From Acidobacteriota bacterium (GTDB taxonomy: Bacteria > Acidobacteriota > Terriglobia > Terriglobales > Acidobacteriaceae), in NCBI GenBank assembly GCA_021792135.1, contig JAJYVF010000027.1, positions 1 to 64,000 of the forward strand: a DNA stretch of 64,000 nt, read 5' to 3'. Positions 61,516 through 63,603 of the stretch are shown in pieces. Numbering within the stretch: the first letter of the stretch is position 1; each line of letters starts with the position of its first letter. The position numbers and the translations under genes are program-made. The notes under the pieces were generated by a model. The model made no database searches and had not been told where the DNA came from. It worked only from the letters and a program-made list of their open reading frames with translations.

Positions 61516-63603
61516 ATGTCAAAAGCCGTCAAATATGGAGAGAGAGCGGTGACCATCGCGGCCCAGGGCGCCTGGACCGTCTTTGAGAAGCTGAACAGCA
61601 TTCGTCCCAATCCCTCGTTCACGCCGAAATGGTCCGATAAGCCGCTGCTGAAATCCTGGCAGAAGGAGAAGCCGCCGCTGGGCTGGCCGCGCACCACGGA
61701 TTCGCTCTGTCCGAAGTGCGTGCCGGAGATCCGCAAGCAGATCCTCGATGGCAAGCTGCCGCACGAGATCCTGCTGAACGAGAAGGTGGGTGAGATCAAG
61801 GCGCAGATCATCGAACGCGATGGCCAGATCCTGATGGTCAAGGACTGCCCGAAGCACGGCCACTTCGAAGACGTGATGTCGATCGATCCGGCCTTCATGA
61901 AGCACCTTGAGGAGGTCTTCCCGGGCCGTGACATCCGCGCGCACAACGACGACAAACTGCACAACCATGGCACCTCGACAGTGACACACGGGCGCGGCTC
62001 GGTGCTGACGATCGATCTGACGAACCGCTGCAACATGATGTGCGATCCGTGCTTCATGGATGCCAACCAGGTCGGGTTCGTGCACGAGCTGACGTGGGAC
62101 GAGATCAAAACCATGCTGGACAACGCCATCACCATCAAGCCGAAGCGGCAGATGAGCGTCCAGTTCTCCGGCGGCGAGCCGACGCTTTCGCCGTACTTCC
62201 TGGATGCCATCGCGTATGCCCGCAAGGTGGGCTACAACTCGGTGCAGGCGGCGACCAACGGCATCGAGTTCGCGAAATCCAAGGAGCTTTGCCGGGCGGC
62301 AGCCGAGGCGGGGCTGCGCTATGCGTATCTGCAGTTCGACGGGATCGGCAACGCCGCCAACTCGCACCGCAAAGTCGGCAATCTGTTCGATGTGAAGCTG
62401 CAGGCGATCCACAACCTGCACGAAGCGGGCGTGGATATTGTTCCCGTCACCACCATCATCAACGGCATCAACAACGAGCAGGTCGGGCATATCATCCAGT
62501 TCGCGCTCGATAATCCGAAGAAGATCAACTTCCTCAGCTTCCAGCCAGTCTCGTTCACGGGGCGCGACGAGGGCATCAGCGACGAGCGGCGCCTGGCGCA
62601 GCGCTACACGCTGAGCCACATGGCGCACGACGTGAAAAATCAGACGGGGCTGGGCGTGCCGACGCGGGACTGGTTCCCCATCAGCTTCATGAGCACCTTC
62701 TCGGACTGGGCGGATCTGGTGCACGGGCCGAATCACGAGTGGGGACAGCTGAGCTGCGGATGCCATCCGAACTGCGGCATCGGCATGGCCCTGATGATCG
62801 ACAAGGAGACCAAAGAAGCCGTTCCCGTCACGGCATTCCTGAATGCAGAACGGCTGGCGAAGGACGTGGCCCGGGTCAACGACGCGGCACGCGGCAGGTT
62901 CCTGTCGATCGTGGGCGTGGCCCTGGCGCTGCTGCGGAATTACGATCCGACGAAGTCGCCGACGCACTTCCGCATTCTCGACCTGCTGCAGAAGTTCGAT
63001 AAGTGCTTCGGCGCGACGGGCCGCAACTACGGCAAGGTGACGGGCGACCGCACCATGGCCGATATCGAGAAGCGGCGCGCGGATCGCTGGAACTTCCTGT
63101 TCATCGCGGGCATGTGGTTCCAGGACCTGTTCAACTACGACTTCCGGCGCACCGAGCAGTGCATCATCCCGTACGCGACACAGGAAGGCGAGATCAGCTT
63201 CTGCGCGTACAACACGGGCATCGGCTGGCGGAACATCATCGAGAAGATGCACATGACGGCCACGCTCACGAAGTGGTACGACGAGCATGGGCGGCATGAG
63301 ATTTTCGCCGGCGGCAAGAAGGTAGGGATGGAATCCACAAAGCATGCGCTGGTGCTGAACGAAGAGCATGTGAATGCGGCCGCCAACGACACCTTCGACA
63401 AGCTCGGCATCGCCAGGAACGCCCGCGAAGAAAAGCTGCGGGCGCGTGAAGCGAAGCTGAAGCAGGATGCCGAGAATACGCGGATGGCGAAGCTCTACCG
63501 GGAGCACATTCTGGGCGAGAAGCCGGTGGAGGGAATCGTGCCGATCGGCGCCATCGCGCCGGCTCCGAAGTCGCGCAGCGAAGAACCGGTCATGGGGGAC
63601 TAG
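61516..63603 (+). CDS. Radical SAM enzyme of the tetraether/membrane-spanning lipid synthase type
   Basis: A 695-residue radical SAM protein. The N-terminus holds a rubredoxin-like CPKC (65-68) and CPKHG (111-115) pair. The radical SAM cluster motif is C172-NMM-C176-DP-C179, followed by VQFSGGEPTLSPYF. Further Cys in LSCGCHPNCGIG may bind auxiliary clusters. This combination occurs in the archaeal tetraether synthase (Tes) family and in bacterial homologues linked to membrane-spanning lipids. The last 80 residues are charged and helical. The start at 61516 follows CAGGAGAT; the frame upstream is not credible. It ends before a strong terminator. Confidence 0.82.
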   Translation: MSKAVKYGERAVTIAAQGAWTVFEKLNSIRPNPSFTPKWSDKPLLKSWQKEKPPLGWPRTTDSLCPKCVPEIRKQILDGKLPHEILLNEKVGEIKAQIIERDGQILMVKDCPKHGHFEDVMSIDPAFMKHLEEVFPGRDIRAHNDDKLHNHGTSTVTHGRGSVLTIDLTNRCNMMCDPCFMDANQVGFVHELTWDEIKTMLDNAITIKPKRQMSVQFSGGEPTLSPYFLDAIAYARKVGYNSVQAATNGIEFAKSKELCRAAAEAGLRYAYLQFDGIGNAANSHRKVGNLFDVKLQAIHNLHEAGVDIVPVTTIINGINNEQVGHIIQFALDNPKKINFLSFQPVSFTGRDEGISDERRLAQRYTLSHMAHDVKNQTGLGVPTRDWFPISFMSTFSDWADLVHGPNHEWGQLSCGCHPNCGIGMALMIDKETKEAVPVTAFLNAERLAKDVARVNDAARGRFLSIVGVALALLRNYDPTKSPTHFRILDLLQKFDKCFGATGRNYGKVTGDRTMADIEKRRADRWNFLFIAGMWFQDLFNYDFRRTEQCIIPYATQEGEISFCAYNTGIGWRNIIEKMHMTATLTKWYDEHGRHEIFAGGKKVGMESTKHALVLNEEHVNAAANDTFDKLGIARNAREEKLRAREAKLKQDAENTRMAKLYREHILGEKPVEGIVPIGAIAPAPKSRSEEPVMGD

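What the first reader, a model, noticed from the sequence alone, without database searches (positions are those of the whole stretch)
61516..63603. Tes-like radical SAM enzyme: candidate for bacterial membrane-spanning lipid synthesis
Seen: a 695-residue protein with a rubredoxin-like CPKC/CPKHG pair ahead of a CX3CX2C radical SAM motif, plus a later CGCHPNC site. Known: archaeal tetraether synthase (Tes) makes C-C bonds between lipid tails, and Acidobacteria make iso-diabolic acid and branched tetraether lipids by an analogous tail-to-tail coupling. Inference: this enzyme couples fatty-acyl tails in this organism. The unusually long insert after CPKC and the charged C-terminal extension set it apart from the archaeal form.
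Basis: partly seen in the sequence, partly recalled or inferred. Interest (0 to 1): 0.72.

Follow-up and report, generated by a model that had tools for sequence, protein, structure and literature searches.

The report
Acidobacterial lipid-tail coupling enzyme (Tes-like)
A soil acidobacterium carries a bacterial cousin of the archaeal enzyme that welds lipid tails end to end, a likely but untested source of the membrane-spanning fat typical of its group, built with one of the archaeal enzyme's iron-sulfur sites missing.

Summary
The gene is real and placed as stated: 695 aa, ATG at 61516, dN/dS 0.04-0.08. Sequence and fold put it next to archaeal tetraether synthase (Tes/GDGT-MAS): 7tol E 4e-61; AlphaFold model against 7tom E 6e-37. 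It is not an ordinary Tes: 322 bits against a curated cut-off of 450. It belongs to an acidobacterial clade (143 aligned rows) in which the N-terminal [4Fe-4S] site is gone (C77 and C80 are His and Ser in 143 of 143), the rubredoxin loop is 42 residues instead of 20, and a new cysteine beside the C-terminal cluster is invariant. The radical SAM, rubredoxin and C-terminal cluster ligands, Met439 and Tyr459 are kept. Edaphobacter modestus DSM 18101, with 30% iso-diabolic acid, has one Tes-family gene at E<=1e-20, of this type. Most likely it joins iso-C15 tails of two phospholipids into ester-bound iso-diabolic acid (confidence 0.65). Bacterial Tes homologues were already proposed for this; the clade, its missing cluster and the strain-matched link are what this adds. 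Relation to the validated bacterial Mss could not be tested.

The parts
61502..61507 (+). ribosome-binding site AGGAGA, 8 nt before the ATG
   Evidence: sequence
61516..63603 (+). Tes-like radical SAM protein, 695 aa
61522..61599 (+). N-terminal helix (residues 3-28), ahead of the rubredoxin site; 56 residues more before CxxC than MJ0619 (C9)
   Evidence: model secondary structure; MJ0619 numbering from PMC9433317
61708..61719 (+). rubredoxin half-site 1, C65-P-K-C68
61720..61845 (+). lengthened rubredoxin loop, 42 residues against 20 in Tes-like relatives
61846..61857 (+). rubredoxin half-site 2, C111-P-K-H114 (= MJ0619 C33/H36)
61954..61986 (+). place of the lost N-terminal auxiliary cluster: K147, H151, S154, T157 stand where MJ0619 has C73, C77, C80, H83
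62029..62052 (+). radical SAM cluster motif C172-X3-C176-X2-C179
62755..62775 (+). C414-G-C416-H-P-N-C420; C420 = MJ0619 C338 (C-terminal cluster); C414 is clade-specific and invariant in 143 of 143
63112..63114 (+). M533 = MJ0619 Met439, labile ligand of the C-terminal cluster
   Evidence: role from PMC9433317
63160..63204 (+). C549, Y553 and C563 = MJ0619 C455, Tyr459 and C470
63253..63600 (+). C-terminal extension with a long charged helix (636-664)

Best explanation
It is a cytosolic, membrane-facing radical SAM carbon-carbon coupling enzyme of the Tes family. It binds the tails of two iso-C15:0 phospholipids, takes a hydrogen atom from the terminal methyl of the first tail with a 5'-deoxyadenosyl radical, parks that carbon on a sulfide of the C-terminal [4Fe-4S] cluster, makes a second radical on the other tail with a second SAM, and joins the two ends. 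The product is ester-bound iso-diabolic acid (13,16-dimethyl octacosanedioic acid), the membrane-spanning lipid of Terriglobia. SHOWN here: homology and fold of Tes; conservation of the ligands of the radical SAM, rubredoxin and C-terminal cluster sites; loss of the N-terminal cluster site; presence as the only Tes-family gene at E<=1e-20 in a strain rich in iso-diabolic acid. INFERRED: the reaction itself (carried over from MJ0619), the substrate, membrane contact by the N-terminal helix, and that the N-terminal cluster is dispensable or replaced as electron entry by the enlarged rubredoxin domain.
For: Closest solved structure is GDGT-MAS (E 4.2e-61, E 6.0e-37, TM 0.85 by target and 0.62 by query, next other protein MoaA at 2.3e-9; model pLDDT 85.3, pTM 0.86). 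The three C-terminal cluster cysteines and the Met439 and Tyr459 equivalents are invariant in 143 of 143 rows of the clade (L166 and L167 left out, see Tried and rejected); MJ0619's reaction goes through a bond between substrate carbon and a cluster sulfur, assigned there to this cluster (PMC9433317, passages). E. modestus DSM 18101: 1 Tes-family match at E<=1e-20, of this type, and iso-diabolic acid 30.4% (PMC11354219, section 11 read). Of 14 genomes reached through named loci, 11 have no other match of the family; that all 14 have the type says nothing, since they were picked from the hits. Zeng et al. report one Tes homologue, 32% identical, in E. aggregans (PMC8941075, passages), which makes brGDGTs and 26.4% iso-diabolic acid; the identity fits this type. 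The chemistry fits: iso-C15 and phytanyl tails both end in an isopropyl group, and 13,16-dimethyl octacosanedioic acid is what joining two terminal methyls of iso-C15 gives (structure reasoning). The own genome has one PF01869 match, open frame 324 aa, so no PlsA/Ger-sized protein was seen: an ester product is expected. In family f2, 4 of 14 genomes have this type, 6 a 38-40% Tes-like type, 4 neither, none both (reading), as for interchangeable enzymes.
Against: No activity data for any member of this clade were seen. The N-terminal cluster is gone; residues beside Met439 and Tyr459 differ (H440 to W, M442 to Q, H458 to P); of the four residues that bind 5'-deoxyadenosine in MJ0619 (PMC9433317, passage) Phe106, Gln268 and Ser271 are kept but Arg210 is kept in only 5 of 143 rows (mostly Lys), and Asn108 is Asp in 143 of 143: the reaction could have changed. 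Met439 is weak evidence: its Ala variant stays active in MJ0619. Thermotoga maritima, named on the 14-genome control panel (taken to be the same panel), makes diabolic acids (PMC8788747, listing and passages) yet is not among the genomes that ring with the Tes model at E<=1e-20: bacteria can make such lipids without a Tes-family gene, so Acidobacteria may do so too. Mss is the validated bacterial synthase (PMC13274423, PMC11868695, passages) and could be a separate gene here. S. usitatus has two Tes homologues and brGDGTs but no measurable iso-diabolic acid (PMC10087280, section 18), although an iso-diabolic tetraester is said to be reported there (cited in PMC13274423). No conserved lipid operon: the commonest neighbour families occur in 21 of 67 loci and do not look like lipid genes. 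The own genome holds a second Tes/TrsS-like gene. The genotype-phenotype match rests on one strain; no negative strain was tested.
Confidence: 0.65

Rival explanations
1. The acidobacterial iso-diabolic acid synthase is a different gene, an orthologue of the validated bacterial Mss, and this Tes-like protein does a neighbouring step: coupling ether lipids to brGDGT, or making minor isomers.
For: Mss is counted apart from Tes homologues in the Black Sea survey (PMC11868695, passages); T. maritima makes diabolic acids but is not among the controls that ring with the Tes model at 1e-20 (PMC8788747, listing and passages).
Against: No PlsA/Ger-sized PF01869 protein was found in the own genome, so ether lipids as main substrate are unlikely here; the type is widespread in a group where iso-diabolic acid is a major fatty acid. 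Mss models are reported to superpose on Tes (PMC13274423, passage), so the two may not be so separate. Nothing seen here excludes a separate Mss in E. modestus.
Confidence: 0.19
2. It is a radical SAM lipid enzyme with changed chemistry: C-methylation (as at C5 of brGDGTs), cyclisation or desaturation of acyl tails, using the remodelled C-terminal cluster.
For: Long stem branch (1.22) of the clade, loss of one cluster, a gained invariant cysteine, changed residues beside Met439, Arg210 kept in 5 of 143 rows; the InterPro family is named methyltransferase class D (PMC9433317, passage).
Against: The C-terminal cluster cysteines, Met439 and Tyr459 are kept in 143 of 143 rows; the InterPro name also covers MJ0619, which is a coupling enzyme (PMC9433317).
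Confidence: 0.11
3. It is a TrsS-like or other radical SAM maturase unrelated to lipids.
For: TrsS model matches at 209.7 bits.
Against: Cut-off for TrsS is 490; Tes scores 321.9 and is the top fold match; the second genomic paralogue L002 is the more TrsS-like one (328.9 bits).
Confidence: 0.05

Closest known systems
Archaeal tetraether synthase Tes / GDGT-MAS (MJ0619, PDB 7tol, 7tom)
   Same: Fold; radical SAM motif, rubredoxin C33/H36, C-terminal cluster cysteines, Met439, Tyr459, Phe106, Gln268, Ser271, Arg275
   Different: 30.5% identity over 465 aligned positions; below the Tes cut-off; N-terminal cluster site lost; Arg210 mostly Lys, Asn108 Asp; rubredoxin loop +22; extra invariant Cys414; N- and C-terminal extensions
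Tes-like proteins of Acidobacteria (group C here; perhaps the Koribacter/Solibacter homologues of Zeng et al. 2022, a guess from identity)
   Same: Same family, same phylum
   Different: Group C keeps all four N-terminal cluster ligands (34 of 34); median 42% identity to MJ0619 against 30% for this type; 34 of 297 genomes of the phylum have a protein over the Tes cut-off
Bacterial membrane-spanning lipid synthase Mss (Sahonero-Canavesi et al. 2022; not held, known through passages of PMC13274423, PMC11868695, PMC11767167)
   Same: Proposed reaction and product (iso-diabolic acid from iso-C15)
TrsS radical SAM (seleno)protein, NF045646
   Same: Related radical SAM architecture
   Different: 209.7 bits against a cut-off of 490

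Membership tests
Tes (NF045702, tetraether lipid synthase) | score over the curated cut-off of 450 bits | tested here: not met
   321.9 bits
Tes | radical SAM CX3CX2C | tested here: met
   C172/C176/C179; cysteines present in all 183 aligned relatives
Tes | rubredoxin site CX2C...CX2H | tested here: met
   C65/C68, C111/H114; spacing 42 instead of 20
Tes | N-terminal auxiliary [4Fe-4S], C73, C77, C80, His | tested here: not met
   K147, H151, S154, T157 in the window. Of the 143 rows scoring over 600 bits with the window protein, 0 have the set; C77 is His and C80 Ser in 143 of 143. His at 83 is taken by me as the 'conserved histidine' of the paper
Tes | C-terminal auxiliary [4Fe-4S], three Cys plus labile Met439; Tyr459 | tested here: met
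   C420, C549, C563, M533, Y553; that C338, C455, C470 are the three cysteines is inferred from conservation, the passages seen name only Met439
Tes | fold of GDGT-MAS | tested here: met
   7tom E 6.0e-37, TM 0.85 by target
Tes | 5'-deoxyadenosine contacts Phe106, Arg210, Gln268, Ser271 | tested here: inconclusive
   Three of four kept in 143 of 143 rows; Arg210 in 5 of 143, mostly Lys; the alignment may be off by a few residues there
Tes | couples phytanyl tails of archaeol | not testable with these tools
   needs an enzyme assay
Mss (bacterial membrane-spanning lipid synthase) | orthology to the expressed and validated Mss | not testable with these tools
   paper not held, no sequence obtained
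TrsS (NF045646) | score over cut-off 490 | tested here: not met
   209.7 bits
Zn_ribbon_HMPTM (PF23545), N-terminal domain named after MJ0619 | score over gathering cut-off 27 | tested here: met
   49.2 bits, residues 58-122

The most novel reading that the evidence does not exclude
A three-cofactor Tes variant, without the N-terminal [4Fe-4S] cluster and with a remodelled C-terminal cluster site (five cysteines C414, C416, C420, C549, C563 plus Met533), is the iso-diabolic acid synthase of the acidobacteria at large, vertically kept across the phylum and working in aerobes; it would be the main source of the building block of the brGDGT temperature proxies.
Probability: 0.43. Interest if true: 0.78.

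Novelty: new variant of a known kind. Interest (0 to 1): 0.55.

Why it matters
Branched GDGTs from soils are widely used palaeothermometers, and in the papers I could see the enzyme that joins the tails in their best-known makers, the Acidobacteria, is only proposed. This clade gives a concrete gene, the only match of its family in 11 of 14 genomes searched, to delete or express. It also offers a natural experiment on Tes chemistry: PMC9433317 says the roles of the remaining metallocofactors are not clear (passage), and here a clade has dispensed with one of them.

Tried and rejected
Operon context: 67 type-A loci held at 12 kb or more were searched for shared neighbours (ORFs of 90 aa or more within 9 kb); the two commonest families occur in 21 of 67 each, one looking like a secreted protein, one RlpA-like (names by eye, no search). 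The window's own neighbours are DUF2911, thioredoxin/DsbA-like, PemK/MazF-like, SBP_bac_5 and AnmK. No support for a lipid operon.

Membrane helix: residues 3-28 form a helix in the model, but its hydrophobic moment is modest (0.19-0.30); membrane contact stays a guess.

Not pursued.

Second gene of the genome (L002): first thought to be an inactive paralogue; it keeps the three C-terminal cluster cysteines and the N-terminal cluster ligands but has Gln for Met439, so it is not excluded as a coupling enzyme. E. modestus has no second match at E<=1e-20, so such a gene is not needed for iso-diabolic acid there.

Literature: PMC11767167 (passages) says iso-diabolic acid was substantial in 3 of 17 strains of the 2011 study; my recollection of that study is that it was major in nearly all, and PMC11354219 finds 11.8-30.4% in 6 of 6 Edaphobacter strains. 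The 2011, 2014 and 2022 primary papers were not held.

Counting: rows dropped before one search were identical sequences and six partial frames (one of two L108 frames, L136, L130, L051, L064, L067). In one search rows were sorted into types partly by the N-terminal ligands themselves, which is circular; others (score and locus only: 97 of 97 A and 3 of 3 B without them, 33 of 33 C with them; score over 600 bits: 0 of 143 with the set) are not. The 143 leave out L166 (degenerate paralogue, 500 bits) and L167 (partial, 78.8 bits, not of the clade). Among the 143, single ligands survive alone: Cys at 73 in one row (L206), His at 83 in one row. Counts of genomes by type are read by eye from their tables and rest on score and identity, not on checked ligands.

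Full report
OBSERVATION. The gene at 61516-63603 (+) is as described: 695 residues, ATG start with AGGAGA 8 nt upstream. It is under strong purifying selection: dN/dS 0.038-0.082 in 7 of 7 comparisons, five within the genus and two within the family. The window is part of contig C39 (79,514 bases) of a 5.1 Mb genome given as 100% complete. Of the 80 best relatives kept from a named collection (a capped list), 78 titles name Acidobacteria, many only as 'Acidobacteria bacterium', others as Acidobacteriaceae, Edaphobacter, Granulicella or Bryobacteraceae. So the organism is a Terriglobia acidobacterium (inference; the genome itself is unnamed).

WHAT IT IS. Pfam gives Radical_SAM and the N-terminal zinc ribbon named after MJ0619. 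NCBIfam's best model is Tes, 321.9 bits, below its cut-off of 450. The best solved relative is GDGT-MAS/MJ0619. An AlphaFold2 model from 41 window and locus sequences (pLDDT 85.3, pTM 0.86) matches 7tom and 7tol with TM 0.85 by target length and 0.61-0.62 by query length; the third match, MoaA, is about 26 orders of magnitude weaker in E than 7tol.

LIGANDS. I mapped the metal ligands published for MJ0619 (PMC9433317, passages) onto an alignment of 137 relatives sorted by score and locus alone, then of 183. Types: A, the window type; A2 and B, related types; C, Tes-like; D, more distant. In C, 34 of 34 have all four ligands of the N-terminal cluster. Of the 143 rows that score over 600 bits (A, A2, B), none has the set: C77 is His and C80 is Ser in 143 of 143, Cys at 73 survives in one row and His at 83 in one row. 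The window has K147, H151, S154, T157. In the same 143 rows C33, the three radical SAM cysteines, C338, C455, C470, Met439, Tyr459, Phe106, Gln268, Ser271 and Arg275 are invariant, and H36 is kept in 142. Against a plain Tes reading, Arg210 is kept in 5 of 143 and Asn108 in none (Asp in 143). C414 is invariant (143) and C416 nearly so (142); MJ0619 has Leu and Ser there, and 26 of 34 C rows have C416. The rubredoxin loop is 42 residues in 95 of 97 A rows and 3 of 3 B rows, and 20 in 32 of 33 C and 4 of 4 D rows. Two rows were set apart: L166, a second gene of Acidicapsa dinghuensis that has lost the three C-terminal cysteines, and L167, a partial distant row.

TREE. On 72 rows, with the N-terminal cluster columns left out, A, A2 and B (42 rows, L166 included) form one side of a branch with SH-aLRT 100, on a long stem (1.22), among C rows (quick search, midpoint root, long-branch warnings printed). 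The simplest reading is one loss of the N-terminal cluster within the sampled Acidobacteria. Other phyla were not sampled.

DISTRIBUTION. Of 61 genomes (own included), 44 have a copy or piece at 63% identity or more (read); G033 has only an 81-residue piece at 60% and is not counted. Within the family, 31 of 37 have it; G001, G012, G020, G029 and G031 do not, and G029 is 99% complete, so some losses look real. Over the phylum, 163 of 297 genomes match at E<=1e-60; 143 of these have a best E of 1e-200 or below (A, A2 or B by score; that this equals the 143 rows above is chance) and 20 only the weaker, Tes-like kind (read). 34 of 297 have a protein over the Tes cut-off. In family f2, 4 of 14 genomes have the window type, 6 the 38-40% type, 4 (54-88% complete) neither, none both.

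PHENOTYPE. Fourteen genomes behind loci were searched with the Tes model at E<=1e-20. They carry the type by selection; the finding is that 11 of 14 have no other match, and none is over the cut-off. One of the 11 is Edaphobacter modestus DSM 18101, and for the same strain iso-diabolic acid is 30.4% of fatty acids (PMC11354219, section 11); its protein equals the window's at all 15 ligand and neighbouring positions printed. Related Terriglobia have 26.8-49.2% (five printed values, PMC12935467, passages). Against this, T. maritima makes diabolic acids without ringing in the Tes search at 1e-20 (assuming one control panel), and Solibacter usitatus, with two Tes homologues, was reported without measurable iso-diabolic acid.

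HOW IT WORKS. By analogy with MJ0619: hydrogen abstraction at a tail end, storage of the carbon on a sulfide of the C-terminal cluster, second abstraction, coupling. The tail ends are alike: iso-C15 and phytanyl both end in isopropyl, and joining two terminal methyls of iso-C15 gives 13,16-dimethyl octacosanedioic acid. The lack of a PlsA/Ger-sized protein (one PF01869 match, 324-aa frame) predicts an ester product. ElbD and GrsA were not searched. Met439 is not essential in MJ0619 (M439A stays active), so its conservation is weak evidence for the reaction.

WHAT IS KNOWN. Zeng et al. proposed that bacterial Tes homologues, including one of 32% identity in E. aggregans, may make brGDGTs (PMC8941075, passages); Halamka et al. 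the same for S. usitatus (PMC10087280, section 18). Sahonero-Canavesi et al. are cited as having identified Mss; that paper is not held. In ten paper searches and the passages I read, I saw no statement that the acidobacterial proteins lack the N-terminal cluster; most subscription papers and all supplements were out of reach.

VERDICT. A real, conserved and probably active Tes-family enzyme, best read as the iso-diabolic acid synthase of Terriglobia; not a member of Tes in the strict sense; a new variant of a known kind.

Noticed in passing
L002 (G000:C2:84374-85717, minus strand): A second Tes/TrsS-like gene of 539 aa in the same genome keeps the N-terminal cluster ligands and three C-terminal cluster cysteines but has Gln for Met439 and Cys for His36; both Tes (333.9) and TrsS (328.9) models score below cut-off.
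   Followed up: partly
L166 (Acidicapsa dinghuensis genome): A second, B-type paralogue has lost the C-terminal cluster cysteines (Ser, Ser, Ala) while keeping the radical SAM motif: a candidate for changed function.
   Followed up: no
L150:4517-5333 (beyond the window's end): PemK/MazF-like toxin gene with a 148-aa neighbour of no Pfam match, a possible toxin-antitoxin pair, downstream of the gene.
   Followed up: no
L056 and L068: Two MAGs labelled Rhodanobacteraceae carry 82-84% identical copies; probably misnamed or mixed bins.
   Followed up: no
family f2, G037-G050: The window type and the 38-40% Tes-like type occur in different genera without overlap (3 genera each), as for interchangeable enzymes; ligands of the second type were checked in G037 and G049 only.
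   Followed up: partly
window:60596-61147 (-): DUF2911 protein gene directly upstream, on the opposite strand.
   Followed up: no
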